From NCBI RefSeq assembly GCF_002127325.2, contig NC_035443.2, positions 147,636,415-147,700,414 of the forward strand: 64,000 bases of DNA, read 5' to 3'. Below, piece by piece: positions 17,827 through 63,936 of the stretch. Position 1 is the stretch's first letter; every line of letters begins with the position of its first letter. The DNA is from Helianthus annuus (lineage: Eukaryota; Streptophyta; Magnoliopsida; Asterales; Asteraceae). The notes below the pieces were generated by a model. It saw only the letters and a list, made by a program, of their open reading frames with translations, did not search any database and was not told the DNA's origin. Both the position numbers and the translations under genes were made by a program.

Positions 17827-17876
17827 AACTGAGAGATCTCAGGTCAGAACTTCCGTTCAGCAGAGAGATATCAGTT
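17827..17876 (-). ncRNA. Conserved hairpin, T5 copy 2 (sense order)
   Basis: The outer stem pairs AACTGA (17827-17832) with TCAGTT (17871-17876), and ATCTC (17836-17840) with GAGAT (17865-17869). The loop holds an inner stem GAAC/GTTC (17847-17850 / 17855-17858). In sense orientation it closes a GGAA tetraloop of GNRA type and is followed by CTGACCT. The call as a functional RNA element is inference; the pairing is seen in sequence. Confidence 0.6.
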
Positions 17877-17991
17877 TCGACTTAGCAGTGTGTCCCCTTT
17901 AGAGGATCTTTTCAGCTACAACCGATGATTATCAATTTTATTGTCTAATCAGCTGAGGGCTTTATGCTATGTTTCAAGCATTTTGCGGAAA

Positions 17992-18839: not shown

Positions 18840-21108
18840 TCATTTAAACAGATTCACCCAAGCCTGACGGTCCTTGGGTGATTTCGAATTCTTATTCAAC
18901 AATGGTGGAAAATTTGTATCATCCATTGTTAAATCTGAATTCTCCTTTTTTACCTCAACCAATGGCTCCTCTGGCTTCGACGAACCAGAATCATTGCCTG
19001 CAGGTGGCTTGTCTGACTTTGACCTGTCAGATTCATCGCCGACCTTTTTCTTCTTCTTATCTTCTTTCGTCCTCAGATTTGTATCTGATGAATCTGTATT
19101 GCTTGACTTTGCAATTGATGGGGTTGATTCACCAGAACTTTTATTCTTTCCAACGGATGAACCCGAGGACAATATCTTCTCCAGATATTCTCTTGCTTTC
19201 TTTCTTTTCTTCCTCAGTCTGTCTTTCTGCCCCTGTGAAAGCTTGACTTTCTTTTCTTGAATTTTCTGTTATTGAACTTTTGGTTTTAGAACCTTCTGTT
19301 CCTGGGGCTTGACTTTGACTGGAATCTTTGCCAATTTCTGAGAATTAACCCTCAATCTGTCATTCGATTTCCTTGGGCATTCTCTGGCAATGTGACATTT
19401 GATTTAGCAATTGTAGCATCTTCTGGTCTCATAACTCCAATTCCGGCAGTTAACAGCAATGTGTCCTTGATAACCGCATCGGTAACACACTCTGTTATCA
19501 TACTGTATACCACCTTCACACCAAACGCTCAAATCATAGCATTGTCTGGCTTGGTGATATTCTTTCCTCAAGTTTGCTGGATTTGGCTTTTGAGCACTGT
19601 GGTCCAACCTGCACCACTTATTACCAACAATTTTTGAGTTTTCATTTTTTACTTTTTGTAATTTTTCATTACGATTGGATGATCGATCTGATGAACTTTT
19701 ATTATGTTTTTGAAAATTTTTCTCATTCTTAATTTTTTGTTTCTGTTCCACTTTCTTCTTCAAAGGTTTTTGCTTAGAGCATTCTCCCTTTTCAGTCGAT
19801 TGTAGAACAGTTTTCTGAAAATTTTCTTTCAAATTTAAAAACAATTTTTGTTTTTCTAATTTTTCATTTTCATCATCAGATTTTTCATCGCAATCTTCAA
19901 CTTTGACATTGTCAAAGTTTGTGACATCGTCACTTATTGGAACAGAGTTGATTGGTTTTGGACACGGAAAATTCAACTTGTCAGATGAAGTCACAAAACC
20001 TTTCAACTTCTTTTCAAGTTCATCCATCTTGATTCTTGAATTCTCAACTTCTTTTTCAAGCTGAGAAATTCGTTCAAGATGAGACTTGATTGCTTTTTCA
20101 TTCTCAATCTTCTTGTTTTCAAGAACAGACTTTTCATTTTCCAAAACTTTTATCTGTTCTTGAAATTTCGTCTCGTTAGCTTTCAGATTTTTGTTCTCAA
20201 GCTTCATCCAGAAATCTTCATTTTCTGATGATTTCTGTTTGCTTTCAAAAACCTTTACATTTTCTTTCAAACTTTTGTTTTCAAATGTCAAACTGTTCAA
20301 CCCATCCAACAGTTTGTCATTTTCAGCTTTCAATTTCTCACAATTTTCCTGCAACATAAGAATCTGTTTAATATCAGCTTGCTTCTCGTCTTCCAACTTC
20401 TTGACTTTCGATGTCAAACTTTCCGCATCCTTCAAGAGTTTGTCATTATCAGTCTTGAAGTTGTCACATTCGAAGCATACTGTTTCAGAACATGAAGTTT
20501 CATTCTTCACAGATTCTTCAACCTTCGGCACATGTTCTTTCTCTATCTGATATGTACCTGCACCAAAGATTGTAACCGAGGATTTCTATTATCATCAATA
20601 TAACAACCTCTTTTCATATCATATACCAAATTTCTTTTTGCTGCCCAACAAACATTGATTCTTTTATTTATTTCAATTATCACATCTAAATTCAAATCAT
20701 CCAAATTCATTTTTATCTTATCCAATATTTCTCTCTTCTTTTGATAATTCTCATTATCGTGATTTTTAAGTTCGCTGATGAATTTATTCAGAGGTAATTT
20801 TGAAAAATTAGAATTTTCTTTCAAATTCTTCAAAAAATCATCCCATTCAGCTGATAAACCATTAGCAAACTTTGATATCTTATCAGCTTCTACTATCACT
20901 ATTTGATTTTCCTTCAAGTAGTCAATCAAACGATCAAAACGTTTCTCCAAATCATCCAATTTCTCATCTTTCTTACTCAGAAAACATTCGAAACGTTTAC
21001 TCCAAACATCTTTGGTAATTTCTGATAAGAACTACTAAAATATCCTCGATACCAATCATTCAATCTTTTAAGATCATTGTTTTCCTGCTCATCAAACTTC
21101 ATTGCCAT
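18840..21108 (-). pseudogene. T5 gag (coiled-coil, zinc-knuckle), frameshifted
   Basis: The start is set at the ATG on minus at 21108 (MAMKFDEQEN). The frame breaks near 20990 and again near 20540. Pieces at 20543-20959, 19404-20531 and 18840-19172 give a copia Gag: a partial capsid-like domain, a Lys/Glu-rich coiled coil, a zinc knuckle (CYRCGYQGHIAVNC) and a second knuckle whose codons are split by TAA at about 19401-19403. The last part is Ser/Lys/Asp-rich and ends RQAWVNLF. The closing AWV is shared with T7 (DAWVDI) and T8 (KAWVPI), which suggests a common Gag C-terminus. Confidence 0.75.
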
Positions 21109-22249
21109 TTTTCAACACAATCTGTTCAAATGAAAAACCAAGTTCAAACTATATCCTTCTTCAAACGGAACAGTTTCAAATGATAATGATCTTGTTCAAA
21201 CAGAAGTTGTTTCAAACGGTTAACTTGGACCTTTTTTTTTTAATATGGGCGGCAATCATAATGAATGTTAACAAGTGGGCGGTGGAACAACAAATTTGAA
21301 TTGGGCTATTTATTTTAGTGGGGCGGTGCGAGGATTTGGATTGGGCCGATTCAATTAACCAATCAATAAATGGGACGGTGCAATAGGATGGGATGGTTAT
21401 GAATCTTGGACGGTGATTAAATGGGCGGCAACTATTTTTGGGTTTCACATGTGAACATTTCCAACAACTTGAATATTACGGCAGGCTACAAAACACACGA
21501 TGGAAAATCCTATAGGACCTCACAAACCCACTACTTCCTTATTAATAATAAATCACCGACCCATCGTTTGAGATGTCAAAAGTGTTGTGAACCGTTTGAC
21601 TTTGTTTTAAACATTGATTGAGCTTATTGCTTTACCAATAACAGCACATGCAATCAATTTAATAAACTGATGACTTTGACAAACCGACACACATCACATG
21701 ATTCAATATAATTTTTCAAGCGGTCAGTATCAGATTTCAAACGGTGAAAAGTATTATATTTTTTTAAACGGTCGATGTATTTCAAACGATGGGATATGTT
21801 CAAACGATGGGAAGTATTTTTCAAACGACAGAACAACTTTTCAAACGGTTAGCCCAGTTTCAAACGATAGGAACCCTGTTTTCAAACGATGGATCCAAGT
21901 TTTCAAACGACCGGTTCAAACGGATGATGATCTTCAAACGATGGAACCAAATTTTCAAACGGAACCCATGATTTCAAACGATAGGATGTCAATTTCAAAC
22001 GATGGGATTGAAATTTCAAACGGTCAGACACTGTTCGTTCAAACGGACACCCTTTTTAAGCCATTTTTACCAATTTTACGTCGAGTTTTAAGCTGAGATT
22101 CTCAAGGCTTGATTAAAACACTGTTATGTATGTTATATGTGAAAATCAGCCATTTTTAACCGTGAAAAGTATCTAATTTTGAAAGAATGTGTAGAAAATC
22201 AGAATTTGCTAGCGAAAACGAGCTAAACGGTAAGAAGTCTTCCTCCTGA
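21109..22249 (-). repeat. T5 leader with a dense CAAACGG/CAAACGA array
   Basis: This is noncoding leader between PBS and gag. At about 21125-22050 the plus strand carries some two dozen copies of TTCAAACG(G/A)(T/C), at irregular 15-40 bp spacing and densest at 21715-22050. The same word forms the LTR array. The ORFs here (21212-21448, 21421-21621, 21654-21836, 21698-22096, 21789-21971) are chance frames through the repeats. Confidence 0.8.
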
Positions 22250-22261
22250 GCTCTGATACCA
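22250..22261 (-). other. T5 primer-binding site
   Basis: On the minus strand this reads TGGTATCAGAGC, 2 bases from the right LTR, which fixes the direction of the element. Confidence 0.85.
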
Positions 22262-22263
22262 AT

Positions 22264-30401: not shown

Positions 30402-33170
30402 TCATTCTTCAGTTATGGCGGCTGGATTCTCAGTAGCTTGCTTCTCGGGCTCTATTGGATTTTCTTCGTTAATTGTTGTTTCTGGTGGTGCCTCGGTCTC
30501 GGTTGGTGCTTCCGGAGTTTCTTGAGTAATTATAGCTTCACAAATTGGTTGGTCCTCCTTAGTGGCCTCATATGTGGATGAGGCCGGAGGTGGTGATGTG
30601 GTGGTGGGTTCAGTAGTAGAAGCAGAAGTTCCTTCTTTCTTTCGTTCGTGTTTCTTCTTCTTTCTTGCTTCCTTTTTCTTATCATCCTTTTCTTTCCTCT
30701 TCTCAATTTTATCAACCAAATCCAGCATATCTCTTTTCAACTTCCATGCTCGCTCCACCGCTCTCTGAAATAACGCAGCCTCTTCCAAATTTGTATTTCC
30801 GGCTCCTACATTTATACGGCTAGCGTTTAATATTGTCAGATCTGAGAGCCCAAACATAAAGACATCCATCAGATCCAGAATACGAATATCTTCATTTTCA
30901 TTGGATCTTATTACAGCTTCACCAGTCCTGCTGTCATAAAACCATTTCTTAAAATTAGTGAGAGCGACAGGAACTTCTTCTGGGAGCTTGATCCTCGTGA
31001 CAACTTTGGCTGGGTTGATTACCCACGTCACTTTACCCTTTCCAGTTACTGGATCGATGGTTGTTTTTGAAACTCTGCGTCTAGGACGCTGCAGAGCATG
31101 ATCTGGGAAACCCTTGTTACTTTCTTTGGCAATTATTCGCTCGAAATCCCTCCCGATTCCTCTTTCTTCATGGTTTAATATGTCTAGACGACCAAGTTCC
31201 CGTAGATCCCACCTAGGAAGTGTGAAAAGATCAAAGCCAGTTTGGAAATACTGGATTACTCCACCACGTCTCTTTACCACGAACATTCCACGAAGATTGT
31301 CATACATCCAGCTGATTATTTTATCCGTAGCTTCAGTCTTTTCCACTGTTATTACTTGATAGAAATCCGGGAGTCGTTCTCTCTCTTTCTTAAACCATTC
31401 AGGGTGCTCAGGAGAGAAGGTTTTTCCATTCTTTTGTTCATAGAGAACTTCGTCTTCAAGACCCCATTCAAGAAACTTTGCTGACATATCATCCCGATCC
31501 ACAACCTCTTCATCACTTTCGTTTCCTTCCGATACTTTGTCGACCGATTCCAAACGCTTTTTCTTTGCTTCTGCCTCCTTTTCTTTTCTAGTTGTTTCTT
31601 CTTCTATGAAAGCATCAAAGTCAAAGATTTCTTCAAAGGTGAACATTGGCTCGACTTTCATTTTCTCACACATGCTTCTCATCATTCTATACATTTTCTC
31701 CAACCCTGCTTGCAGGAATCTGATGAATTTGGACTGCTTAGCCATGTATGCAGTCATTTCTTTGTTTTTCTTCCTCTGATCCTTGATCTTTTCCCTCAGA
31801 AGGTTCGTGTCGTTTACTTGATTCTTTAGCAGACAGATTTCTTTGGCAACTGAAGGCCCAGTATCTTTGATCAGCTTGTCGTAGAGTTCTTGAAAGGGGC
31901 GAACCCTTTGTGGAGGTATTGGAGGCCTTGAAATCCTTGTTGGCTACATAGGGGACACTTTGGAGGGGCCTTGACTTGCTGGGACTTCAACAGGATCAAC
32001 AAGTAAGGTGTCAACAAATTCATTCATTCTTTGAACTTCCTCAGGCACCGTCTCTGGTCTTTCTGAGGATGATATCTCTTTTCTCTTCAACTTCTTTTCT
32101 CTTTTCTCCTTTTCTTGCAAGGCGTGAATTGCTTTCAAATCTTTAATGTGCTGGCGTTGTTCTTCTGACTCGCCCGCCCTTATGCCTGCCTCCATAAATC
32201 GTTCAGTGCTTTCCGACGCCCTATTCTTTTTGGGTGGAACGTCTTCAGCTGCCTGTTTTTCTTTCCTTTTTCCTTTAGCTCATTCTTCTTTTGTGGCTGC
32301 TTCGGCTTGAGCTTGAGCAGCTCGCTATTGTTTTTCTCGAACAACTTCTTTGTACCTTTTATAAGCCTCCTTGACTATTGGTAATCTCTCTGCTTGGTAC
32401 ATCCAATCATGCAACAGCACCCATTCATTGGTCTTTATCTCAGTGTACTGACGGCTAGTGGGTACGTGGAACTTGTAAACATTTCCATCGTTTGGCAGAT
32501 CCTTGTGTTGATCATTGATAAGCACCTGAATGAATCTTGGATACATCGCCCACGTAGCTCCACTTGCATTTTCAAGCATATAGTTGAATATTAATCCAGA
32601 GAGATTAAACTTCTGATTAAGACATAAATTCAGCATGGCTGCCGACCATTCCAAGTTCAAACCATCAAAGCCACCCTTTCTGTGAGCCAAACTCATAGAA
32701 ATAACATGAACAATGAATCTCCAGTCTCTGGTGAGTCCTCCTCTCTTGATCTCTTTCTTATGACTGAAATCTCCAGCGTAGCCCATTCCTTGAAAACCAT
32801 CAAGAATGTCATCTTTGCTCATGCTTAACGGATCTTGATCATTGTCTAGCAGCTTCAGAACCTGACGGATCCTGTCTTCAGTCACTTCTACTCTTTTGTT
32901 GCGAACCGTTGACACTATCCCTCTTTTGTTGTTGATGGTTTCTACTTTTGCGTTTTCCCAGAATTCTTGTATGTGAATGTTGTAAACCTAAACTGCTGTC
33001 TCCACAGCATAACCGATTCTGCTGGAACGTACCCATCTACTCACATCTTCAAAATCTAGAGGCACTTCGTCCAGGTTGATGCTTTGATTATGTTTCAACG
33101 TTTTATCCCACTCGAGAATCTTCACCATACGGCACATGGCACGTAAAACGAGGCAAGTTAGAACGAACAT
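30402..33170 (-). pseudogene. T6 extra ORF downstream of pol (env-like position)
   Basis: The minus-strand ATG at 33170 directly follows an in-frame TAA, which fixes the start. The frame runs about 920 codons to 30402 with nonsense codons near 32985, 32322, 32279 and 31941. The N-terminal third is globular (LTRDWRFIVHVISMSL ... MYPRFIQVLIND); the middle is Lys/Glu-rich and likely helical; the next domain (DFYQVITVEKTEATDKIISW) is followed by a basic then Pro/Thr/Glu-rich tail. I see no signal peptide or membrane segment, so it is not an obvious envelope. Similar ORFs accompany copia elements in Asteraceae, to my recollection. Function unknown. Confidence 0.65.
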
Positions 33171-34151: not shown

Positions 34152-34686
34152 TATCTTAATTCAGCCGCCAAAGGTTAAATTTCAAACAGTTTTAATTTTG
34201 CTCGTTGGTTTCAAACTTTCTCGTAAAACGTGCCCATTTTTGTTTAAAATGCTGTTTATTTCGAAATATTTACAATATTGCTAAAAATTGGGCCATTTTG
34301 ACTCCGAACTTCAAATTTCTTGCTTTGGGAGGTTCCATTTAATGCAAATTTTCTTGAAATATCCGACGCTCATCGAACTTACCTGCAGAAGATCATCTTG
34401 CCAACACTCGCCAAATTCTTTATCTATTATTATTATTATTTACTAACCAGGGCACAAGAAAAACTGCCAGTATGTTTGCCCGCTTAAATCCATGCATCCT
34501 TCTTTCAACATGCCTTCGGAGAGCGCTATTATCATGTTTTGGTAATATTGACAAGTCTTCGACACAAGCTATTGAGAATAGAGTCATTATGCCCTCGTGA
34601 GTCCCACGTCAGGACATACCCCCGCGATCAAGGTATGCACAAAGATTCTTCATAACGGGTGAGTATATTGGTTTCATTCTCTTCAA

Positions 34687-34743
34687 CGATAGAACGGAGA
34701 TCAGGTCTGTACTTTCGTACAACAGAGATCCCAAGAGCTATCG
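34687..34743 (-). ncRNA. Conserved hairpin, T6 copy 2 (sense order)
   Basis: Stems pair CGATAG (34687-34692) with CTATCG (34738-34743), GG+GATC (34696-34702) with GATC+CC (34727-34732, one bulge), and CTGTAC (34707-34712) with GTAC (34717-34720) plus CAG (34723-34725). The sense tetraloop is GAAA, a classic GNRA loop. It lies 8 bp from the next hairpin. Confidence 0.6.
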
Positions 34744-34750
34744 AGGGCTA

Positions 34751-34813
34751 AGATAGATAGTTCGGTGAACAGGTCAGTACCACCGTATAGAAGAGTTACC
34801 AACTAATCTATCT
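34751..34813 (-). ncRNA. Conserved hairpin, T6 copy 1 (sense order)
   Basis: The outer stem is the longest in the window: AGATAGAT/ATCTATCT, AGTT/AACT, GGT/ACC and AAC/GTT in succession, about 18 pairs with small bulges. The loop has the shared TACTGACCTG context, but the inner stem is weaker (3 pairs) and the sense loop is GGTG. Confidence 0.6.
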
Positions 34814-35462
34814 AAGGATTTTGGCCAAAAATGGCGCTTATTATGGGTTTTGGCCAAAAATGGCGCTTATTAGAAAGGGTTTGGCCTTTTTTTTTGTTTT
34901 TTAAGGCACTTATTATTAAAAGAATATCATAGCGTCTAGGTCAGCATGTATCTGGATGCAACAGAAGAACAACTATGATATCCTCCGAATGAAATACCAA
35001 TATAAAGACCCGAAGTCTCAGACTTTGGCAATCTGTCAACGCAAGATTCAAGACCATTAAGCCATATGCCGCAACGTGTTACCCACTGAGATGCGTAATG
35101 CCTGAGAAAAGCAAGAATTCTTGTGTAGACATTATGTTTTGCTCCCTAACAGCAGTTTACTCGTCGGTGTTGCTGAATCTACCGACACGTCGTTGCTTGG
35201 CACCCTGATTTAATTTTGTATTCTGTTAAAAGAAATGACAAAGTTAGCAATTTTCTATCACTTCCTCTAGCAGGAGTCAGACATAAGCATTTGTTTTTGG
35301 ATTTTCTGAATATATCCTCCCTAAAATCTTTATTTTCGTGAGTCCATTTGCCCGAAAATAAAATTTTAATGAGAAAATCTTTTTGGTGGGCAACGTTTTC
35401 CGATACTTGTTTTATTTTTCAACAAACGTTTTTTTTTTTTTTACAAATTTTGATCACAAGAT

Positions 35463-35820
35463 TCATTTCCAGTCAAGGAAATTGACCATTTCCAACCAGG
35501 TTACCAACTGGTTGAATCGGGTTTTATCGAAGGCTTTCGTGAAGATATCGGCCCGTTGCTGTGTTGTATCCACTGGCACCACTTGAATATATCCCTTCTC
35601 GTAAGCATCTCGAATTGCGTGAATTCGAATTTCGATGTGCTTTGTTCTTGAGTGGTGTATGGGATTCTTCACAATTCCTAGACACGCTTCATTGTCGATG
35701 AATATAGGAGTCTTCATGATGTTGATTCCATAATCCAGCAACTGATTTTGTATCCAGAGAACTTGTGAACAGCAGCTGTAGGCCGCGGTGTATTCTGCTT
35801 GAGCGGTTGAGGTGGACACC
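35463..35820 (-). pseudogene. T6 pol, C-terminal RNase H end
   Basis: This frame resumes after T7 and encodes the copia RNase H end: AEYTAAYSCCSQVLWIQNQL, then FIDNEACLGIVKNPIHHSRTKHIEIR, and the closing RADIFTKAFDKTRF motif. It ends at 35463. The other half of RNase H lies at 42979-43113. Confidence 0.85.
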
Positions 35821-36503
35821 TGTTGGTGCAGTCATCTGTCGTCTTCGTCTAATGTCGAGTCCGGGTTGCGTTGCGAATCTGATTAAGCATGATGTCATCA
35901 TGTTTAATGATGACATCATACTTGTGACATCATCATAATATGAATATCATCAAGACATCAGTAAACGACAAAGTTCATTTGGACTTGAAAGTTAATTGTG
36001 ACAACTTGTTGTGATTGGACCATAGAAAGGTCCAATGATATGTCATCATGAAAAGGACCAATGAGAAGCATTGGTTTGAAGGTCCAATGAGGTTCATTTG
36101 ACGGCTCACATGGAGGTTTGAAGAATCAGTCAAATGAGGAGGTTCGCTTTTATTGCAAAGATTTGAATGGTTCGCTTATTTGGATTTAAGTGAGATCGCT
36201 TATACGGCAACATGGAAGGTTCGCTTTTAAGGTCATGCTCATGGTTCGCTTTTGTGTTCACTGTCATTGGAGCGGTCCAGAAATACTATAAATAGGTTCA
36301 TTGTCATTTCATTTGTAACATTGTTCAGATCTGATACCGAGGTATTGCCGGTTTTTCCTTGTAAACGTAAACGTTGTAAAATCAATATACAAGAGGATTA
36401 AAGTGTGATACAAGCTGTGTACACGTCCGTTTCCTTGTTTCCGCCTCTGAAACGGAGTTGAGCTCTTCCGAACGACTCGTTTAGGTGGAAATCCGATCCT
36501 ACA
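35821..36503 (+). repeat. T7 5' LTR
   Basis: TGTTGGTGCA...CCTACA. It contains an 11-bp inverted repeat (GATGTCATCAT 35891-35901 / ATGATGACATC 35907-35917), five to six GGTTCGCTT-type words at about 36130-36250, and TATAAATA at 36288-36295. Confidence 0.9.
36288..36295 (+). promoter_or_regulatory. TATA box in T7 5' LTR
   Basis: TATAAATA lies about 40 bp after the last GGTTCGCTT word and is conserved in the 3' LTR. Confidence 0.65.
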
Positions 36504-36505
36504 AT

Positions 36506-36518
36506 TGGTATCAGAGCC
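36506..36518 (+). other. T7 primer-binding site
   Basis: TGGTATCAGAGCC begins 2 bases after the 5' LTR end. It is an exact initiator tRNA-Met-type site. Confidence 0.9.
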
Positions 36519-37958
36519 AAGGAGGAGGAGATCTCGCATATACAACTCGTTTTCATCATTTTTTTTTGCTTCTACACCTTTCTTTTTCGAAAAAAACGGA
36601 ACTTTTTTACGGTCAGAATCGCTTCAAATTTACACAGTGTGTGCGTAATCATGAATTAACAAAACCTGGAAGATTTCAGAACTTAAATCGGCCTAAAATT
36701 GGTTCAAATTGTGCCTTCGCTTGCTTTCGGTTCGTACTTTGCTGACGTCACCGAGGTTCGCTTCAAAATATTGTTTTGGTTCGCTTTTTAGGACATTATT
36801 CTGCCAGGTTCGCTCAAAATTACATGCTTGGTCCGCTTTTTCTAACATCATTTGAGGATCGCTTATTCAGCAACATGACGGATCGCTTTTAGTGCAATAT
36901 GTGGTCCGCTTATAAGACATATTTTTGAGTCTCGATAATATGTCATACATACTTTTTGTGGATTTAGGCGGCCCAATCTTTGTTCAACAACAATTGATGT
37001 TGTAAGATAATAGGCCTGTCACGTGTGATACATTTAACGAGGATTGTTCAGTAGTAGTTGCATGTGCTTTTATTGGAAAAACAACTCAAATCCGATTTAG
37101 TAAACAACTCAAACAGCTCATAAATCACTACATCATATTATAAATGCCCAATTAACTGTTGCCGCCCATTAACCTTAGAGGCCCAATCGGATTTTTAAAG
37201 GAAATATAATATAGCCGCCCAAAATTTTAGTACTGCAGGAGATATTGATGTCACGTCAGTTCATTAAAGTGTTGTTATAGTGGCCGCCCAATAAGATCAA
37301 TTTTAGTTGCACCGACCCATCAAATACTACGGCCCTATCATTAATTGTGTAGTGGATGCATATAACTAGTTGAAATTGTGGCCCAATCCCATCACTAAAC
37401 AGGATCCATTATAATCGAACACCAAATGAAATTGATTTAGTGGTTGTAAACTGGTAATTTGTTGTGTCCATATATTCATTAAAAATTTGTTGCTTAGTGG
37501 GTTTATTGTCCAAGTTGTTGTTGATAATCAAGAGTGTTGGCCAAATCATAGTCTTCGGCCCATGCTTTGTTGTTTGCCATTTAAATTGTGATCATTTGAA
37601 TTTGCATTGAATATTGTTTTTGTCGATACATGTGATAAAGTCAAGTGTTTGTAGGTGTTTTTGATCGAAAACACATAACAAGTTCACTAGAAGTGGTTAA
37701 GTCCATTTGATTTCAAACTCGGTCAAGGTTGGTGTAGCAAGGTCATTAGAAAGTCAGTCAGTTTACACGAAAAAGGGTCACGTCATTCGTATTTGATCCA
37801 AGTCATAGCTGTCCGCACAGTGTGTCAACCTTCAGTCTGCACAGAATTTTCACCAATTCGAGTAACAGTTCGTTTCCATTAATTGATAAAACTTTAAACT
37901 GATTGTGTTGTTTGTGTGTTATCGGGTATTTCCCGAAGTATCATCTGATTTTTGAAAC
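36519..37958 (+). other. T7 untranslated leader
   Basis: This is 1.4 kb without a gene. GGTTCGCTT/GGATCGCTT/GGTCCGCTT words recur at about 36750-36915, continuing the LTR array across the PBS. Later, GCCCAAT-type words recur at about 36970-37400. The ORF at 36485-36745 is a chance frame. Confidence 0.7.
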
Positions 37959-40286
37959 ATGGAAGAGAAATTTTACAATGCTCTTGCTACCCCGGTTGAT
38001 ACAGTTTCAGCTGCATTATTGAAGAAATCATTTGATACGTTTGTGGCTTTTGAAGATGAAACAACAAAGCAGACAATTGATAGATATTGTCATCTGGTAT
38101 TGGAAATGGGTAGATTGGACATTAAGAAAGAGGATGATGAGTGGATCGATAAGCTAGCTGAGGCTTTACCCCAACAGAAGTGGGGAACTTATCTGTTGAT
38201 TGTAAAACACATGAGGAAGTCTCAAGTTATGAATCTGGCACAGTTTATTCAGAAAATTGAAGAGCATGAGTTGGATATCCAGAAAAAAGCAAAAGTTGAA
38301 GAAAGTTCAACAAAGGAAGCTGAAGGACAGAAAACTGAAAAAGAATCTGATGAACCAGTGACTGAGAAAGAAGTTGAAAAATTAGTGGATGTCGAGAAAC
38401 TTGTTGAAGTTGAAAAGATTGTCGAAATAGAAAAGATTGTCGAAATCGAGAAACTTGTAGAAGTTGAAAAGACTGTCGAAGTCGAAAAAATAGTTGAAAA
38501 GGTGATTGAAGTTACAAAGCCTTGTGAGAAATGTTCAGAATCTTGCAAAGAGTGTGATGAGAAAGACAAAAAGATTGCTGAGTTGGAGAAAATGAAGGAA
38601 GATTTACTGTCAGATGTGAAGTACGTTAAAGAGTCATACGACGTATTGAACAGGACAGTTGACAGTTTAAAAAGAGCAAATGCAGAATTTGAAAAAGCAA
38701 ATGACAAGATGAGTGCAACTTTAATGACAAAGCAAAGCGTCATCAATGATTATATCGAAGATTGTGCTAACTTGAAGAAGGAGTTGGAACTTGAGAAGAT
38801 CGAGAGTGAAAGGATCAACCGATTACTTTTGAGTTACACTACTTGTGATTATCTGATTGATCGTGTTTATCCTACTGTTGCAGGTCTTGAAGCGTTCAAG
38901 AAGAAAGAAAAAGATAAAGAAGAGGATACTGGTAAGAAACCAAGTGTCAAGTATAACAGATGTCCGCCTCCTATCTTTGAGAGTTATTCCCCCAGGAAAC
39001 CAAATGAGGAACAAGTAAACAAGGCTCTAAACATCAAATTAAAGTCTGAAATCACTGATGAATTACCAGACAATATTGATGTTACATTCACAGCGTCTGA
39101 CACTGATCATGAGTCCGAGTTAGTTAAAAAAGTTGTCGATCAGGTGTTGGATATGGATGAAGAGTCAAAGTCGGAGTCTAAGTTGGATAGTTCGAGTTCG
39201 TTTGAGAAAAGTCCGAGTTCGCTGGTTAAGAGGGTTTACAATAAAGAATTCCTGTTATCAAAATCTAATTTGAATGACGAATCAATCAGAATAGCTTATA
39301 CATTGAATGATTCAGACAAATTATATTCTGATGAGGAATTCCCAATAAGAAGTGTCAAAACTGAAATGATTAAACAGGTTTTCAAATTAACAGAAATTAA
39401 TATTTCTGAAATAAAAGATGTAAATCTTACTGAAAAACCTAAAAAATACACTTCAAGAGTTCAACAGAGATTGAACAAGAAAAAGGGTTATGATTATGGT
39501 TCAGGTTATCGAAAGAAACCAAACCATAATGGTAATCTCAAAAAGAAAGGTCTTGGTTTCAATTCTTCAGAAAATTATAAAAATCAGAAAACTTATAAAC
39601 CAAAAACAAAATTTGTTTCAGGAGGAAGTTCAGAGGATGAACAGAAGAAACCGTTCTGGAAGCAGTCGAATCAAGAGTTTCTTGCTAAAGTAAGGAAGAA
39701 TGTGATAAAATCTGCTCAAAGAGTTGATAGAAGAACCTGTTTCAAATGTCAAGAAATTGGTCATATAGCTTGGAATTGCCCCAAGACCAACTACCAAAAA
39801 CAGGGAGTTTCTTCTAACTCTGTTTTGAGAAAGAAATGTGTTGATAAATCGACTTTGGAAGTTGGTGAAACTTCAAAATGTTTTTACAAAAGACAAGTCG
39901 ATTTGAGTAAACAAAAGTGGGTGGTTAAATCCGAGGGTAATTCTGACAATGAATCTGATTCCATAAAATCAGAGGAGTCACTGGTTGAGAAAAAGATTGT
40001 GAATTCCGTTCCTGTGATGAACGATGGGAATTTTCCGAAACTGTCAAAGGAAAATTTGATGAAGAAAGTTGGAAAGACTGAGATTTCAAATCAATTCTTC
40101 GCTGATAAAGGAGAATTTGATGTTGAGAAGGCTTTCAACGGGAAAGTCAAACATATTTTTGGGAAGATGGTTGATAAGAAGGTAAAAGGTGCTAAAGAAT
40201 TTTATAAATCAAAATGTTGGTGGGACAGATGTGTTCCAAAGTCACCCAAGGCTGGTGACGCTTGGGTGGACATTATGTTTGAGTAA
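37959..40286 (+). CDS. T7 gag (775 aa), intact
   Basis: The N-terminal ~110 residues match the copia Gag capsid-like (UBN2-type) pattern (DRYCHLVLEMGRL). Residues about 131-185 are a near-perfect tandem of (V/I)E(V/I)EK(L/I) hexapeptides, followed by a long Lys/Glu coiled coil to about 300. A CPPP motif (YNRCPPPIFE) is shared with T8 Gag (YTKCPPPLMN). One zinc knuckle, CFKCQEIGHIAWNC, starts near residue 595. The C-terminus ends with the shared AWV motif. The start ATG at 37959 gives a full capsid domain. Gag probably assembles virus-like particles and binds the element RNA; without pol it would need a helper element for reverse transcription and integration. Confidence 0.85.
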   Translation: MEEKFYNALATPVDTVSAALLKKSFDTFVAFEDETTKQTIDRYCHLVLEMGRLDIKKEDDEWIDKLAEALPQQKWGTYLLIVKHMRKSQVMNLAQFIQKIEEHELDIQKKAKVEESSTKEAEGQKTEKESDEPVTEKEVEKLVDVEKLVEVEKIVEIEKIVEIEKLVEVEKTVEVEKIVEKVIEVTKPCEKCSESCKECDEKDKKIAELEKMKEDLLSDVKYVKESYDVLNRTVDSLKRANAEFEKANDKMSATLMTKQSVINDYIEDCANLKKELELEKIESERINRLLLSYTTCDYLIDRVYPTVAGLEAFKKKEKDKEEDTGKKPSVKYNRCPPPIFESYSPRKPNEEQVNKALNIKLKSEITDELPDNIDVTFTASDTDHESELVKKVVDQVLDMDEESKSESKLDSSSSFEKSPSSLVKRVYNKEFLLSKSNLNDESIRIAYTLNDSDKLYSDEEFPIRSVKTEMIKQVFKLTEINISEIKDVNLTEKPKKYTSRVQQRLNKKKGYDYGSGYRKKPNHNGNLKKKGLGFNSSENYKNQKTYKPKTKFVSGGSSEDEQKKPFWKQSNQEFLAKVRKNVIKSAQRVDRRTCFKCQEIGHIAWNCPKTNYQKQGVSSNSVLRKKCVDKSTLEVGETSKCFYKRQVDLSKQKWVVKSEGNSDNESDSIKSEESLVEKKIVNSVPVMNDGNFPKLSKENLMKKVGKTEISNQFFADKGEFDVEKAFNGKVKHIFGKMVDKKVKGAKEFYKSKCWWDRCVPKSPKAGDAWVDIMFE

Positions 40287-41217
40287 AACACCGGACTTGC
40301 CGGAGATCCCAAGTTTATATCGTGGATCAGGAATCGGCATCTTTCTTGTTTAATTAGGATGATTTGAAAATGTTTGAAATTGTCAAAATTTTACAGATTG
40401 AAGGACTATGCCGGAGCTTCCAGGTTGGTAAGCGAGGAGCAGGTATCGGCATCTTTCTTGAGGAATATACGGTAATGTCAATCATGCAAATGGGAAAAAG
40501 GTTTGTTTGTGTTTGTTTACAAGTGGTTAGTAGATTTGATTGTGCATAACTTGTGCATATGGTAAATCAAGGATATTAATTTGTACTTGCATTTTCCTAC
40601 AAGTGATTGAGAGACAAAATGTTGAACCACATCCCCGAACTTAGTATTGATATACTTACAAGTGGTAAAATCAACCAAACTTATTTTCTGGAAAAATCAT
40701 TTTGATTAAAACAAACTTAAGTGTTTTGAAATCTAAATGAGAAAATATTTTGTTGATAGGGGGAGTTCTGATTGTTTATGCCAAAAGTTAATGGCGAATT
40801 GAGGCGATTTAATATCAGTTGTCATGTTTCTGTACAGTTTGTTTTCAATTTTCGTTAATGTGTTTGCATTTTAGGGGGAGTAGAAATTTCAGAAAATCCA
40901 AAAACATTAGAAAATTTGAAAAAGACAAAAACATGATAAAACCAAAAATGAGTTTGTTGTGAAAAAGAGGAAATGATACAGCGGACTATCACAACATGCT
41001 AAAGATTTGGGAAGTTTAAAAGTGTTAAACAATCTTACTCTGGATATGTCAGTAGATTTTTACACATTTAATAAACTGTGTCGAGATATAAACTAAATTT
41101 CAAACTTGCTTGTTCTGTGGGTTAACACAAACTTGGATATATAGGTAACCCCTGAAATCTTGTTTGAAAGGTCCCTTATTCTGAGATACTAGGTCTTTAT
41201 GCTCAGTGATATCTGGG

Positions 41218-41273
41218 GTATTATCCCGGGACTTCTACTGTATGGAAGTACTGACCTAGTCCCCGGATAATAC
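41218..41273 (+). ncRNA. Conserved hairpin, T7 copy 1
   Basis: GTATTATCC (41218-41226) pairs with GGATAATAC (41265-41273). After a C/C mismatch, GGGACT (41228-41233) pairs with AGTCCC (41258-41263), giving 15 pairs in all. The loop contains an inner stem GTAT/GTAC (41240-41243 / 41248-41251; one G-U pair as RNA) with a GGAA tetraloop, then CTGACCT. Confidence 0.65.
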
Positions 41274-41386
41274 TTTCTGCAAATGCTTGAAAAAGCGCCG
41301 CCCTCAGCAAATCGATGAAACAATAAAATTGATAGTCATTGCTGTTGTAAAAAAGATCCTCTAAAGGGGACCCACCAAAAGTCGAG

Positions 41387-41432
41387 CCGTCATCTCTCTG
41401 CTGAACGGAAGTTCTGACCTGAGCTCTCACGG
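41387..41432 (+). ncRNA. Conserved hairpin, T7 copy 2
   Basis: The inner stem GAAC/GTTC (41403-41406 / 41411-41414) closes a GGAA loop and is followed by CTGACCT. The outer pairing is CCGT (41387-41390) with ACGG (41429-41432), plus CTC/GAG between. The core word CTGCTGAACGGAAGTTCTG is identical to that of T5 copy 2. Confidence 0.6.
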
Positions 41433-42290
41433 TTTCTCACCTAACCCCTTACAGATATCAGCTGTGGTATACTCACCTGTAAGACTGAATATTGGGATCT
41501 GGATACGGGAGTATATTCAAGTAGTGGGACACACGGATAAGTTTTAGTTTCTAAGACATTAATATCGTATCTCGGATTAGTTGAACTTTGTGTGAAAATT
41601 TAAGTGGACCAGTATACTGACAATCTAGGTAAATTGTTTAAAACTTAAAATGAAATGAAGCATAATGGTGTTGGTGATTTGTCTCATAAGCTGATATGAT
41701 CCTCTTACACAAACTCACAAAAATAATGTTTGTAAATATTTCTTTACAGTGTCTTATTTCTCTTATGTCAAAAATCCAAAAAGATTTTAGTGTGTTTTAG
41801 CTAATTTTTTTAAAAAATTCAAAAAGATTTTCGACAACTGATGTTGGAAAGCTGATTTTCAAAATTCCAAGTTCTAAACATGACGAACAGATGGTTTGGG
41901 AGAGTGTGTTGATTTTTGAAAACAAAAATGATGTATATCTCAAAGTGGTTCTTCAAATTGTAAAATCATTCTGTGATTGTATACTGTCTGCGAATGATTC
42001 ATTAGATCTTTACATGTTATCATCAGAAAATTTATATTTGGGTAGAGGATGTGCAGGTTTTGAAGACCAGGTTCCGATACTTGAAGTCTTTGTGATTTCA
42101 ACATGCCAGACTGCGATCCCAGCATATCGAAAGGGGGAGTCTGAAGACATCTGAGTAGAGATTGTGCATGGAGAGTCTGTTGATGATGATGAAATGAGAA
42201 GAGAAAGATTTGAGGATGCTTTCACTATGAGAAAGACTGAAGTCGTTGAAGACTCGACACTTTAGACTCGTCAACATCTGAGGGGGAGTC

Positions 42291-42973
42291 TGTTGGTGCA
42301 GTCATCTGTCGTCTTCGTCTAATGTCGAGTCCGGGTTGCGTTGCGAATCTGATTAAGCATGATGTCATCATGTTTAATGATGACATCATACTTGTGACAT
42401 CATCATAATATGAATATCATCAAGACATCAGTAAACGACAAAGTTCATTTGGACTTGAAAGTTAATTGTGACAACTTGTTGTGATTGGACCATAGAAAGG
42501 TCCAATGATATGTCATCATGAAATGGACCAATGAGAAGCATTGGTTTGAAGGTCCAATGAGGTTCATTTGACGGCTCACATGGAGGTTTGAAGAATCAGT
42601 CAAATGAGGAGGTTCGCTTTTATTGCAAAGATTTGAATGGTTCGCTTATTTGGATTTAAGTGAGATCGCTTATATGGCAACATGGAAGGTTCGCTTTTAA
42701 GGTCATGCTCATGGTTCGCTTTTGTGTTCACTGTCATTGGAGCGGTCTAGAAATACTATAAATAGGTTCATTGTCATTTCATTTGTAACATTGTTCAGAC
42801 CTGATACCGAGGTATTGCCGGTTTTTCCTTGTAAACGTAAACGTTGTAAAATCAATATACAAGAGGATTAAAGTGTGATACAAGCTGTGTACACGTCCGT
42901 TTCCTTGTTTCCGCCTCTGAAACGGAGTTGAGCTCTTTCGAACGACTCGTTTAGGTCGAAATCCGATCCTACA
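42291..42973 (+). repeat. T7 3' LTR
   Basis: It is the same length as the 5' LTR, with six substitutions and no gaps by eye. The PPT GAGGGGGAGTC precedes it directly. Confidence 0.92.
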
Positions 42974-42978
42974 ACACC

Positions 42979-56668: not shown

Positions 56669-57915
56669 AACTCCCCCTTGGCTGTAGCTTTGTCTTTATC
56701 TTCTATAGATGTAGACTCGTCTCGAACTTCGATGGTCTTTGGTCTTCGAGTTCTCAAAACTCTGATGTCCTTTCAAGTCTTCAATGTCGGAGGATCTTCA
56801 AAGTCTTCACGTCTTGAAAGCAGAAAGTGTATCAACAAACTACCCGTATCAGGTAGGAAGTGTGTTGACAAACTCCCCCTTAACATAAGCTCCCCCTTGA
56901 GTTATGCTCGTGAAAAACTTGATCTTTATGAAGTGAGATCCTTGTGGTGTTGATGGTGGCCTGCGGCAACTCGATCATCTTCATCTTTTGAGCGCCTTCT
57001 CGTCGTGTCTTCATTCCAAAGCTTGTCATCGACCATGTTCTCCTAGCCTTTAGAATCTGCACATGCAAGAAATCTAAACGCGTAATGAGAACAACTGCTT
57101 GGAATAGTTAGTATAACCAAATGACACACGAATGACCATGTCATAATCAAACACCGTCCGACAGTTTGAAAGTTTAATAAATTTCTCAATTTTAGACTTA
57201 ACTTTCAAAACTTGCAAATTTCGACCGTTTATGAAGATTTAGTCAATTCGGTTTTCGTTCAGGTTTCAGGTAACGAAGACTCGAGCTCCAACATCGTACG
57301 ATCGAAGATAAAGTAGAAAGAAAATCTTTTTGGCTTTTATAAAGTTTATATTAAAACTCCCCTAAAATCTTTTTGGTATTTTTGAAATTAAAAGGCAACA
57401 ATTTTAATATCCTTTGAGTGTTATCAAACGACATCACCGCTAATGTCGTGCTGATATGCACCAAACGACGAAACTGTTTAAAAGAAAACAATAAAAGTTA
57501 AGCAGTAAATAAATATATACAGACATTCTTTTTGCGAGTTTCGAGGGTAAGAGAATCATATCAGTGTACGGTCATGCCAAAACACTCTTGTTGTTCAGTT
57601 AGTTAACATTAAGATAAGCATCCTATAACAATTATCGGTATTGTTATCCACTTAAGCTCAACTTATCAGATGTAATCATGGCGAGGGGATACGTTAAGGT
57701 ATAATTTATACTTACCGACCGGTGTTCATCCACATCACGACACATTCCCGTATCAAGGTATGCACGAGAATTCATCTTACCGGTGAGTATACAGATTATC
57801 ATCTGTTTGACCGTATAAGCTGTGAGATACTCACTTATTTTGATTTGAAAACAAGCCCTATGTGATATAATCACTTATTGATGAGGAACTTGATTTTCAT
57901 ATGCATGAGGGCACA

Positions 57916-57973
57916 GGTGCAAGTCCGTGAACAGGTCAGTACTTCCGTACAGCAGAGAGACGAACTTGACACC
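57916..57973 (-). ncRNA. Conserved hairpin, T8 copy 2 (sense order)
   Basis: Outer stems GGTG/CACC and CAAGT/ACTTG (with a one-base bulge) and CGT/ACG enclose the core. The inner stem GTAC/GTAC (57939-57942 / 57947-57950) closes a sense GGAA loop and is followed by CTGACCTG. The inner stem differs from T5 and T7 copy 2 at both paired positions. Confidence 0.62.
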
Positions 57974-58073
57974 CGGATAAATGTGATATTTTATCACTTA
58001 TTTGATTTGGACATGTGATTGTTTATCACTTATTGAGGTCGAATGCAGTATGTAATATGTACACGTATGTATA

Positions 58074-58136
58074 GTATCATGGAAGATCTAGACTTGCGTC
58101 CCCGTTATTTTTCGGTAAAAGATACAACCATGATAC
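58074..58136 (-). ncRNA. Long stem at the position of hairpin copy 1 in T8
   Basis: GTATCATGG (58074-58082) pairs perfectly with CCATGATAC (58128-58136). The outer stem corresponds to GTATTATCC/GGATAATAC of T7 copy 1, but the loop lacks the GNRA inner hairpin. It is probably a diverged homolog. Confidence 0.5.
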
Positions 58137-58545
58137 CCAGATGATAAGCAGCATAAAGACCGAATATCTCAGAACCTCGGCAATCTATCAAACGAAATTT
58201 CGGTACTAAGACCATATGCCAATGAATGGTTCCCACCTGGTCTTCAGTCGATTAAGATTTATATCACCCTGCACACTTTAAAATGATTGTGAGCCTACCG
58301 ATACATCTTATATAGAGCTGCTTATCGTTTTACATTTAAGGTTTAAAGAGGTTTGGATAGACCACTGATGTACTATCATTTTCTCTTTTGCTCGCCAGGA
58401 AACTCATTTTTGTTTTTCTATTGTTTTTGAAATTTTTTGATGTTTTTGGATTTTCAGATTTTCGGATTTACTCCCCCTAAAATCAATAAACTAAGACAAA
58501 TTTAAAACACAAAGGTATTTACAAAAATGATTTTCCGATGTTGGT

Positions 58546-61998: not shown

Positions 61999-63936
61999 TC
62001 AGTTGAGAATGGGGACCCAAGCCTTAGTGGTCTTGGGTCGTCCCTTAGCATCACGAAACGTGAGCTCGATCTCTTGATGGTTTTTAGGAACAATTTCTCC
62101 CCCTGAATTGTCACCCGACTTAGGTAACCAAGTTCGTTTTTGCCTACCAGTTTTTGAAGATTCTGGTTTTACAGGTTGTGACACACTTGGTTCCTTTTGA
62201 ACTGTTTTAACTTCAGATTTTAAAGCTTTTTCAACAGTTTTCATGTTCTTACGTCGTTGTTTAGTTTCTTGTTCTTTTACAGTTCGTTTATCATGTTTAG
62301 GTGAAACTGACCGACGTTGAGGGTGAACTGTTTCAGGTGGAGCTTTCTCAACAAATTTCTTCTTTGGAGCATTTGGGCAGTTTCTGATGATGTGCCCAAT
62401 TTCTCCACATTTGAAACAAGTTCTCCTTTCAACAGACTTAGGAGAACTTGATCGACTAGCAGATGTTGAACCTGTAGAACCTGAGGTACTTGCTCTTTCA
62501 TCACACCCGTTTGTGTGTTGGGTGTAATTGTTATCACTGTTACGTTTCAAAATCTTGACTTGTTGTACAAAATCAGTGTTTGATTTGTTTTCGATAGTCT
62601 CAATTTTATCTGTACCTTTTGATGCTACAAATTTAACATCTTTTGCTTTCTTCTTGTAACGAGCTCCTTTTGATTCAACCTTAGCCTTTGGCTTTGGAGC
62701 TCGTTGTTGTTGTTTACCCTTAGAAGCAGTAGGTTGTTGAGTGGTTGGAGATTTTTGATTACCAAACTGTTTTCTAATCTCAGCCTTAGGAATTGGATCA
62801 CATTGTGTTACAACAATTCCCGGAAGTGTTTTTCCCAAAAACATGTTTGTGTTGTCTTCAAAGACTTTATCAATCAAGGATTTGTTTACATTTTTAATTG
62901 GGAAAACGTGATCTGAGTAGATTTTATTATCTCCAACCAAGGTATACAACACATTACTGCTTTTAACAGTAGACACACATGTTTCATCAACTTTGACAGA
63001 ATCAATCACTTGTTTCTTAACAGATGAGACCTCAGGAGTATCAGGATCACAAAGAATGTGATTCTCGCGAGGAATAACTACTCCTTTCATCTTTTTAAGT
63101 GATTTATCCCGTTCACCTACATCCACTTCTGATTCATCATCCGATGTCTCATAGTCCTCGATAATTGGAGGACTTAGCTTCACGGATGATGAAGTTTCTT
63201 GTTGCTTAGAGGATGAATTTTCCGGTTTGAACCCTAGGCCAGTAGCAAACTCCTCAACATCTAGAGGCACACTGGGTTCATACCGAGGCATTTCCTCCTC
63301 ATCAGGCATCTTGGTATAATTGTTCATCAAAGGGGGCGGACATTTCGTGTACCCTATGCCTTTCTGATTTCCTTTCGGTTGTTGAACATCGATGATGTGA
63401 TCAAGCACAAATTGGGAGTTAGAGTAACTATCCAATTTCTGTTTGATCGCATCATGCTCGCATTGGGCAATGGCTAATTGCTTTTTAGTTTCTTCCACAA
63501 TGTTAATATATTCATTTATACTTACTTGCTTGTGGTAAACTACTTTGTTAACCTCGGACACATTTTTCTTTAATGTTTCTATTACAGATTTAAATTCTTT
63601 TTCATTCCGAGTTAAAGCCATGTTTGCCTCTTTGCATTTTGACAATTCAATAACCAAATTCTGATTATGACTATGAAGCTTTTCTGATTCAAGCTTCATA
63701 TCAGCACATGATTTACACACACTAGGAGCAGGAGGTTCAGAATTTACCTGACTAGAAGAGGCTGAGCCGTTTGCCATAAAGGCAGTTTGAAAAGAAAAAG
63801 CTCCATCTTCAGAAAACAGCTTCTCCATTTCCTTTGATGCAGTAGCAACCTTCCTAATCAGAATCGATTTCTGACATTTAAGCTCATCAGCTTCATTCAG
63901 AAGATCCTGAATATCTTCACCTCCTTCCTCCTTCAC
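61999..63936 (-). CDS. T8 gag, partial at the N-terminus
   Basis: At least 645 codons are open, and the same frame stays open to the window edge without a stop (acidic Ser/Glu-rich codons), so the true start is outside. Features are a long coiled coil (residues about 70-190), a CPPP motif (YTKCPPPLMN), a basic Lys/Arg-rich region, and a zinc knuckle CFKCGEIGHIIRNC near residues 507-520. The C-terminus ends KAWVPILN. It resembles the T7 and T5 Gags in order of parts. Likely role: particle assembly and RNA packaging. Confidence 0.82.
   Translation of the reverse strand: MKEEGGEDIQDLLNEADELKCQKSILIRKVATASKEMEKLFSEDGAFSFQTAFMANGSASSSQVNSEPPAPSVCKSCADMKLESEKLHSHNQNLVIELSKCKEANMALTRNEKEFKSVIETLKKNVSEVNKVVYHKQVSINEYINIVEETKKQLAIAQCEHDAIKQKLDSYSNSQFVLDHIIDVQQPKGNQKGIGYTKCPPPLMNNYTKMPDEEEMPRYEPSVPLDVEEFATGLGFKPENSSSKQQETSSSVKLSPPIIEDYETSDDESEVDVGERDKSLKKMKGVVIPRENHILCDPDTPEVSSVKKQVIDSVKVDETCVSTVKSSNVLYTLVGDNKIYSDHVFPIKNVNKSLIDKVFEDNTNMFLGKTLPGIVVTQCDPIPKAEIRKQFGNQKSPTTQQPTASKGKQQQRAPKPKAKVESKGARYKKKAKDVKFVASKGTDKIETIENKSNTDFVQQVKILKRNSDNNYTQHTNGCDERASTSGSTGSTSASRSSSPKSVERRTCFKCGEIGHIIRNCPNAPKKKFVEKAPPETVHPQRRSVSPKHDKRTVKEQETKQRRKNMKTVEKALKSEVKTVQKEPSVSQPVKPESSKTGRQKRTWLPKSGDNSGGEIVPKNHQEIELTFRDAKGRPKTTKAWVPILN

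What the first reader, a model, noticed from the sequence alone, without database searches (positions are those of the whole stretch)
41218..41432. A hairpin module is shared by four different copia elements (T5, T6, T7, T8)
Seen: in each element, between the last core gene and the 3' LTR, lies a long stem whose loop contains a small inner hairpin and the word CTGACCT. Coordinates: T7 41218-41273 and 41387-41432; T5 17992-18047 and 17827-17876; T6 34751-34813 and 34687-34743; T8 57916-57973, with a diverged partner at 58074-58136. The LTRs of these elements differ in sequence, so the module is conserved beyond the family level. Known: Sireviruses have conserved noncoding motifs, but I do not know whether this one has been described. 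Inferred: a selected cis-acting RNA structure, possibly for packaging, dimerisation, nuclear export or translation control.
Basis: partly seen in the sequence, partly recalled or inferred. Interest (0 to 1): 0.88.

Follow-up and report, generated by a model that had tools for sequence, protein, structure and literature searches.

The report
Conserved RNA domain in sunflower retrotransposons
Thousands of copies of one group of sunflower jumping genes share a large folded RNA region, built around a repeated hairpin with a nearly unchanging internal loop, which probably steers the element's RNA and which we did not find described.

Summary
Four copia elements (T5-T8) carry hairpins whose stems differ in sequence but mostly stay paired, around a near-invariant internal loop, 5'-UCUNYU / WGACCU-3'. 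The hairpins sit inside a ~600-nt RNA domain with long-range helices P1, P2 and P3. In 32 copies the consensus fold scores -46.3 kcal/mol, against -6.5 +/- 2.7 for column shuffles, -3.1 +/- 2.4 for tree simulations and -21.5 for the antisense strand. It survives removal of six loci fetched with a bias. The host genome (3.0 Gb, by inference sunflower) holds 34,302 copies of the core against 95 of the reversed pattern. All of the first 30 have Sirevirus-type polypurine tracts on the same strand, 25 on both sides. The module is absent from 10 of 10 other copia 3' regions sampled from that genome. Selected structured RNA: about 0.95. Mechanism unproven: an export/RNA-fate element working like a retroviral CTE is my best guess (0.4), with packaging and RNA stability as rivals.

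The parts
41027..41639 (+). whole structured RNA domain of T7: P1 41027-41060 with 41595-41639, P2 41135-41142 with 41511-41518, P3 41190-41203 with 41466-41479, enclosing H1 and H2
   Evidence: RNAalifold on 32 copies mapped to T7; T7 folded alone holds 43 of these 45 P1-P3 pairs
41216..41274 (+). T7 hairpin H1; core loop and cap 41234-41257
   Evidence: (z -4.30)
41387..41432 (+). T7 hairpin H2; core 41397-41420
   Evidence: folding energy alone not unusual
41190..41203 (+). T7 P3 5' strand, with CUU of a 3x3 internal loop
41466..41479 (+). T7 P3 3' strand, with CUC of the 3x3 loop
17610..18262 (-). same domain in T5 (limits approximate)
   Evidence: T5 alone folds P2, P3 and the inner part of P1
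17992..18047 (-). T5 hairpin H1; core 18008-18031
17827..17876 (-). T5 hairpin H2; core 17841-17864
34606..35078 (-). P2-P3 part of the domain in T6, limits approximate (P3 strands about 34996-35012 and 34656-34672); P1 not seen in T6
34914..34984 (-).
34751..34813 (-). T6 extra hairpin between H1 and H2; core 34771-34794
34687..34743 (-). T6 hairpin H2; core 34703-34726 (AGACCT variant)
57616..58323 (-). same domain in T8: P1 58290-58323 with 57616-57660, P3 58150-58163 with 57780-57793
   Evidence: T8 folded alone gives P1 but not P2 or P3
57916..57973 (-). T8 hairpin H2; core 57933-57956
58073..58137 (-). T8 H1 place: outer stem kept, conserved loop lost
40873..40880 (+). AGGGGGAG polypurine-tract copy upstream of the T7 domain (others in T7 40758, 42132, 42281; T5 18510, 18385, 17149, 17031, 16927; T8 58471, 56890, 56873, 56671)
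35821..42973 (+). element T7 (LTRs about 35821-36503 and 42291-42973, probable site duplication ACACC); gag-like ORF 37959-40286, no pol found; lies inside the end of T6 pol

Best explanation
Supported by computation: in one Sirevirus lineage of this Asteraceae genome the sense RNA carries, between the last core gene and the 3' LTR, a ~600-nt folded domain. It is a long rod (P1-P2-P3) whose top presents hairpins that hold the same pyrimidine-rich internal loop (UCUN / ACCU, closed by a C-G or U-G pair and a short cap hairpin). Inferred: the loop is a protein-docking site, often offered in several copies, on stems whose sequence does not matter. Inferred, and my commitment: it works like a retroviral constitutive transport element. 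A host RNA-binding/export factor (or element Gag) binds the loops and carries the genomic RNA to its cytoplasmic fate, so RNA that is to replicate must keep the domain in cis, including gag-only elements that borrow pol.
For: Loop constant, stems free: among 7 window copies 9 of 12 loop columns are invariant and 0 of 14 outer-stem columns, yet 6 of 7 outer pairs show changes on both sides. Caps are exchangeable too: GUAC-GGAA-GUAC, GAAC-GGAA-GUUC, GCAU-CCAGAUAC-AUGC (the 8-nt-loop pattern has 5,378 copies against 68 control), UUGU-GUGA-GCAA in L105. Folding and compensation of the domain. Sense strand favoured (-46.3 vs -21.5). Kept by elements in which no pol was found (T5, T7; tblastn with T8 and T6 pol) and with (T6) or without (T8) a downstream ORF. 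Position fits a known kind: the CTE is a 2-fold symmetric element of ~130 nt near the RNA's 3' end whose two lobes each bind NXF1:NXT1 (PMC4330390, passages); mouse IAP and MusD have such elements, and direct studies of LTR-element RNA export in plants had not been done (PMC12786077, passages).
Against: No protein-binding, export or expression data. No Rfam relation to CTE, RTE or RRE (none at gathering level; none; only a snoRNA family at E 3.9). No splicing in the region was shown, so the need for a special export route is not shown. T8 has lost the loop in H1, so two copies are not essential. T8 folded alone lacks P2 and P3, and T6 alone lacks P1. The covariation test over all column pairs finds none at E 0.05.
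Confidence: 0.4

Rival explanations
1. Packaging or dimerisation signal: element Gag (CCHC zinc knuckle) binds the hairpins and selects genomic RNA for virus-like particles, as paired hairpins do in murine leukaemia virus (recalled, not looked up).
For: Kept by gag-only elements T5 and T7; repeated similar hairpins; caps often expose GGAA or GAAA. T7 and T8 Gag-like proteins are related (E 8e-20) and both carry a CCHC knuckle above the Pfam cut-off.
Against: The 3' position is unusual for retroelement packaging signals (recalled). The most constant part is the pyrimidine internal loop, not the cap loop; cap loops vary. The two Gags are only 23% identical over the aligned part while the loop is unchanged.
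Confidence: 0.25
2. Stability element: shields RNAs with a very long 3' untranslated part from nonsense-mediated decay or deadenylation, like the Rous sarcoma virus RSE (PTBP1) or, by position, the ENE of Arabidopsis Evade.
For: The region lies in about 1.9-2.0 kb of RNA between the last core gene and the 3' LTR in T7 and T8. Loops are pyrimidine-rich. RSE and ENE precedents (PMC5580461, passages; PMC12501189, passages).
Against: RSE sits directly after the stop codon; here the domain starts 741 nt after the T7 gag stop and 223 nt after the homologous end of T8 pol. No U-rich internal loops as an ENE needs.
Confidence: 0.2
3. Shared descent without function: the linkers are simply homologous and fold by chance.
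For: The four linkers align with one another over most of their length.
Against: Sixty alignments simulated on a tree of the same data without structure never reach the real fold (best -11.3 against -46.3) or its compensated pairs (at most 13 against 33); antisense is weaker.
Confidence: 0.03
4. Translation control (internal entry or recoding) of a downstream envelope-like ORF.
For: T6 has two ORFs between the hairpins and its 3' LTR, one with weak Transposase_32 similarity below that family's cut-off.
Against: T5, T7 and T8 keep the module with no ORF of 150 aa or more there.
Confidence: 0.04
5. Small-RNA precursor hairpins or targets of host silencing, as proposed for palindromes in maize Sirevirus LTRs.
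For: Small RNAs map in excess to structured regions of maize Sireviruses (PMC10760457, passages).
Against: Here the loop is conserved and the arms vary, the opposite of a microRNA precursor; selection to be silenced is implausible for the element.
Confidence: 0.03

Closest known systems
Constitutive transport element (CTE) of type-D retroviruses
   Same: cis-acting structured RNA near the 3' end; the same binding site offered twice; helps unspliced genomic RNA out of the nucleus (PMC4330390, passages)
   Different: CTE is ~130 nt and one symmetric stem; here ~600 nt, several hairpins on a rod; no Rfam match; binding partner unknown
RTE of mouse IAP and MTE of MusD
   Same: export elements of LTR retrotransposons, MTE with complex intramolecular structure (PMC12786077, passages)
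   Different: animal elements; no Rfam match found here; function here untested
ENE of Arabidopsis Copia93/Evade
   Same: structured element in a long spacer between ORF and 3' LTR of a plant copia element (PMC12501189, passages)
   Different: ENE needs U-rich internal loops that clasp poly(A); the loop here is UCUN/ACCU
[quoted passage not shown]
   Same: ~400-nt RNA element after a retroelement ORF; binds polypyrimidine tract binding protein 1 (PMC5580461, passages)
   Different: RSE lies immediately after the gag stop; here 223-741 nt away; no decay data
Known Sirevirus non-coding motifs: multiple PPT, PPT/LTR inverted repeat, CGG-CCG repeated motifs (RM)
   Same: same kind of elements, same linker; conserved non-coding (PMC2829016, first of seven parts, section 9 and passages)
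   Different: the IR spans the PPT/LTR border and RMs are short palindromes in LTRs or before env; neither is this hairpin or this domain

Membership tests
Sirevirus (host elements T5-T8) | multiple polypurine tracts upstream of the 3' LTR (the letters AGGGGGAG are recalled) | tested here: met
   4 in T7, 5 in T5, 4 in the T8 linker; T6 only a diverged one
Sirevirus (host elements T5-T8) | RT in the Sirevirus branch | tested here: inconclusive
   T6 and T8 group with Asteraceae copia proteins (100/99); no named Sirevirus reference was in the tree; no RT found in T5 and T7
Sirevirus (host elements T5-T8) | large Gag with CCHC knuckle and coiled coil | tested here: inconclusive
   zf-CCHC above cut-off in T6, T7, T8 and below it in T5; coiled coil not tested
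CTE/RTE-like export element | structured RNA near the 3' end that offers the same site at least twice | tested here: met
   T5, T6, T7 two or more intact loops, T8 only one
CTE/RTE-like export element | binds NXF1:NXT1 or an adaptor and exports unspliced RNA | not testable with these tools
   needs bench work
CTE/RTE-like export element | sequence/structure match to described families | tested here: not met
   no Rfam match at gathering level in the window; none up to E 5 for the T7 domain and only SNORD82 at E 3.9 for T8; T5 and T6 not searched permissively
ENE | U-rich internal loop flanked by G-C pairs | tested here: not met
   loop is UCUN/ACCU
[quoted passage not shown]
   starts 741 nt (T7) and 223 nt (T8) after it
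Sirevirus RM box | short CGG-CCG palindrome, at least 8 copies, clustered in LTR | tested here: not met
   8 model matches in the window, none in an LTR; core is not a palindrome
microRNA precursor | conserved arm, variable loop, small RNA from the arm | tested here: not met
   arms vary and loop is constant; small RNAs not tested

The most novel reading that the evidence does not exclude
The first RNA export/fate element of a plant LTR retrotransposon: a modular docking loop (UCUN/ACCU) that can be placed on any stem, capped by any hairpin and multiplied, within a ~600-nt rod that gag-only elements must keep in order to use their partners' machinery.
Probability: 0.35. Interest if true: 0.85.

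Novelty: new variant of a known kind. Interest (0 to 1): 0.72.

Why it matters
How plant LTR-retrotransposon RNA leaves the nucleus, escapes decay and is chosen for particles is little studied; a 2025 review states that direct studies of export in plants had not been conducted (PMC12786077, passages). Here is a compact motif with tens of thousands of copies in one crop-like genome, with clear near-invariant positions and clear freely varying ones, so the supposed docking site can be tested with short RNAs. If a host protein binds it, it would show which cellular pathway a very abundant group of plant elements depends on, and might explain how gag-only relatives persist.

Tried and rejected
Tried without result: exact core pattern in viral contigs (0); RT query in viral contigs (3 stretches, no relative); Rfam at gathering level on the window and permissive on the T7 and T8 domains. 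The scan of bacterial/archaeal contigs with an RT alignment gave 18 copia-like loci; the 38-nt model found nothing in any of them up to E 10 (0 of 18). Three (L063, L064, L068) look to me like plant Sirevirus contamination; L068 shows pol end and an env-like frame with no module between.

Rejected: hairpins as constant GNRA or kissing loops (cap loops vary: GGAA, GAAA, GGUA, GGUG, CCAGAUAC, GUGA); a splice site at GUAAGA downstream of P3 (not kept in T6 or L032); control of a downstream ORF (none of 150 aa or more in T5, T7, T8); microRNA precursor (conservation pattern reversed).

Results against my reading: the all-pairs covariation test gives 0 pairs at E 0.05. T8 folded alone has 0 of 11 P3 and 0 of 8 P2 pairs, T6 alone no P1 pair, T5 alone none of outer P1. 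In 32 single folds the mean pair probability exceeds 0.5 for inner P1 (P1b) in 25, for P2 in 20 and for P3 in 27 (my count); helix S2 is near 0 in all 32 and RNAalifold pairs only the cap of H2, not its outer stem. H2 of T7 is not unusually stable. The outer stem of the seven window hairpins pairs in 69.4% of cells, not all. Of 30 loci from the pattern only 8 lie among polypurine tracts; of their 8 changed closing pairs 5 are complementary and 3 are not. Six loci in alignment A5 came from that pattern, which demands a change at both closing bases, so covariation at that pair was inflated; the repeat without them is. In L111 the fold pairs UCUGC with GCAGA, so the bracketing loop there is not open in the prediction. 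A5 holds 4 window elements and 28 of the 40 distinct domains; I left out ten near-identical T8-type and two short ones (L088, L089), and itself passed over duplicates and loci that did not span the domain. The 30 loci are the first 30 places on contig 1, not a random sample, and include two elements counted twice. The 10 module-less regions (L119-L128, about 1.3 kb each) are 10 of 150 scored matches out of 31,493 candidates, picked for closeness to L068; a module further downstream would be missed.

Full report
What was checked. The window is plant DNA. The RT relatives of highest identity are from Helianthus annuus (93% over 69% of the T6 RT), the others listed mostly from other Asteraceae. 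The whole genome in which it lies is held, unnamed, as G000, 3.01 Gb, window on contig 11; that it is sunflower is my inference. T5, T7 and T8 have clusters of AGGGGGAG polypurine tracts before the 3' LTR, the multiple-PPT mark of Sireviruses in Bousios et al. (PMC2829016; I read the first of seven parts, section 9 and passages; the letters of the tract are recalled). T6 falls in the same clade as T8 by RT. T7 lies inside the end of T6 pol, with a probable 5-base site duplication. T5 and T7 carry Gag-like frames but nothing that matches T8 or T6 pol. T6 has two further ORFs (32325-32915 with weak Transposase_32 similarity, below that family's cut-off, and 30402-31757) between the hairpins and its 3' LTR.

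The hairpin. The window copies consist of an outer stem, an internal loop 5'-UCUNYU / WGACCU-3', a 4-bp cap stem and a small loop. In seven of them 9 of 12 loop columns are invariant and none of the 14 outer-stem columns is, while 79.2% of stem cells pair (outer stem 69.4%, cap 96.4%; 28.6-41.4% when the partner strand is slid) and 6 of 7 outer pairs change on both sides. The core pattern occurs 8 times in the window against 0.03 expected. A covariance model of the seven copies finds all seven and one new copy in T6 (34931-34972, E 0.0023) and nothing else up to E 5.

Genome-wide. TCTNYTNNNNGNNRNNNNTGACCT occurs 34,302 times in G000 against 95 for the pattern read backwards; the shorter GGAAGTWCTGACCT 24,259 against 115; the 8-nt-cap form 5,378 against 68, often as two copies 51 nt apart; the form with a changed closing pair only 80 against 21. 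Of the first 30 places, 30 have [A/G]GGGGGAG tracts on the same strand within 1.5 kb (28 upstream, 27 downstream, 25 both, none on the other strand). So the module belongs to Sirevirus-type linkers.

Variants show what matters. The outer stem is free: GGGACU/AGUCCC, ACCUCC/GGAGGU and ACAGCU/AGCUGU all occur. The cap is free: GUAC-GGAA-GUAC, GAAC-GGAA-GUUC, GAAU-GGAA-AUUC and GCAU-CCAGAUAC-AUGC, and UUGU-GUGA-GCAA in L105. The position next to the cap can be U.U, U-A (T6 AGACCT form) or G-C (UCUGCGU...CGACCU form). In L111-type copies two complete modules stand in tandem; in L111 they lie in a ~540-nt stretch bracketed by UCUGCU and AGACCU on a long predicted stem, though there the fold pairs UCUGC with GCAGA. 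What changes least is UCUN on one side and ACCU on the other.

The larger domain. RNAalifold on the four window linkers found long-range helices enclosing both hairpins. Folded alone, T7 gives P1, P2 and P3; T5 gives P2, P3 and inner P1; T6 gives P2 and P3 but no P1; T8 gives P1 but neither P2 nor P3. Over 32 single folds the mean pair probability exceeds 0.5 for inner P1 in 25, P2 in 20, P3 in 27 (my count). On the 32 copies the consensus has 83 pairs, 33 with changes on both sides; a 3x3 loop in P3, CUU / CUC, is kept in 28 of 32, and both P3 strands also occur in L111 and L118. Energy -46.3 kcal/mol against -6.5 +/- 2.7 for 60 column shuffles and -21.5 for the antisense strand, and -3.1 +/- 2.4 for 60 alignments simulated on a tree (mean identity 0.66-0.67 in the three checked, against 0.69 real). 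The structure of T7 alone, laid on the alignment, pairs 80.7% of cells against 36.4-43.6% when slid, with 86 pairs changed on both sides against 40-51. Without six loci fetched with a bias the result stands: -55.8, 42 compensated pairs, 50 shuffles -6.7 +/- 2.8, antisense -22.6. A stricter covariation test in the manner of R-scape, with the simulations as null, gives no pair at E 0.05 among all column pairs, but 7 of 83 when only structure pairs are asked, and 6, 5, 5 and 2 for the structures predicted from T7, T5, T8 and T6 alone; without the biased loci 3, 2, 3 and 1. The survivors are three P1 pairs and the second pair of the H2 cap.

Lineage. T6 and T8 RTs (57.7% identical) fall in a supported clade (100/99) whose named members are Asteraceae and which leaves out an element of the same genome without the module (L129), Centaurea and Trifolium proteins and the plant-like contigs L063, L064 and L068. 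Ten 3' regions of elements of this genome whose RNase H is close to L068 contain no module within about 1.3 kb (0 of 10). Twelve ORFs from short ENA contigs of unknown host, 48-96% identical to an antisense frame of the T7 linker, show that close copies exist in other data. Presence elsewhere in Asteraceae is likely but not shown.

Function. That this is a selected, sense-strand, cis-acting RNA structure I put at about 0.95; that P1-P3 form in every family is less sure, as T8 and T6 show. The near-invariant loop on exchangeable stems and caps speaks for a docking site read by a protein (inference). Position near the 3' end, repetition of the same loop, and retention by gag-only elements fit an export or RNA-fate element that works like the CTE of type-D retroviruses or the RTE/MTE of mouse elements (PMC4330390 and PMC12786077, passages). 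Packaging and stability are live rivals. Nothing here measures export, packaging or decay. It is not a member of the ENE or RSE families by the features I could test, and it has no Rfam match that would make it a CTE or RTE.

Novelty. Listings from open-access full-text searches for Sirevirus with conserved motifs, stem-loops, secondary structure or hairpins, and for plant retrotransposon packaging or export structures, showed no description of this hairpin or domain. They show at most 20 papers each (20 of 1,589; 20 of 3,431; all 8), I read only the passages named above, and most subscription papers are not in that library.

Noticed in passing
window 35697-42975: T7 is inserted within the RNase H end of T6 pol: T8 pol residues 898-972 match 43190-42975 and residues 972-1012 match 35819-35697.
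   Followed up: yes
window 36504-42290 and 16925-22263: T7 and T5 look like gag-only elements: Gag-like frames (zinc knuckle above cut-off in T7, below it in T5), no pol found, long leader and linker.
   Followed up: partly
window 62097-62104 (-): An AGGGGGAG polypurine-tract copy lies inside the T8 gag frame, a possible central tract.
   Followed up: no
window 120-429: Three AGGGGGAG tracts and what looks like an LTR start mark the 3' end of a further Sirevirus-type element at the left edge.
   Followed up: no
L068 (Eubacterium MAG contig JAILAS010000055.1); L063 and L064 (Labilibacter sediminis contigs): Bacterial genome records hold plant-like Sirevirus pieces, probably contamination; L068 has repeated GGGTCGACCC palindromes between pol and an env-like frame, reminiscent of the RM boxes of Bousios 2010.
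   Followed up: partly
L111-L118: A further family carries two tandem modules inside what looks like an enlarged H1 (about 540 nt between the two halves in L111).
   Followed up: partly
window 21820-22022: Direct repeat of ~90 nt in the T5 leader.
   Followed up: no
window 58755: The T8 pol frame of this copy stops here, about 200 nt before the homologous end of pol.
   Followed up: no
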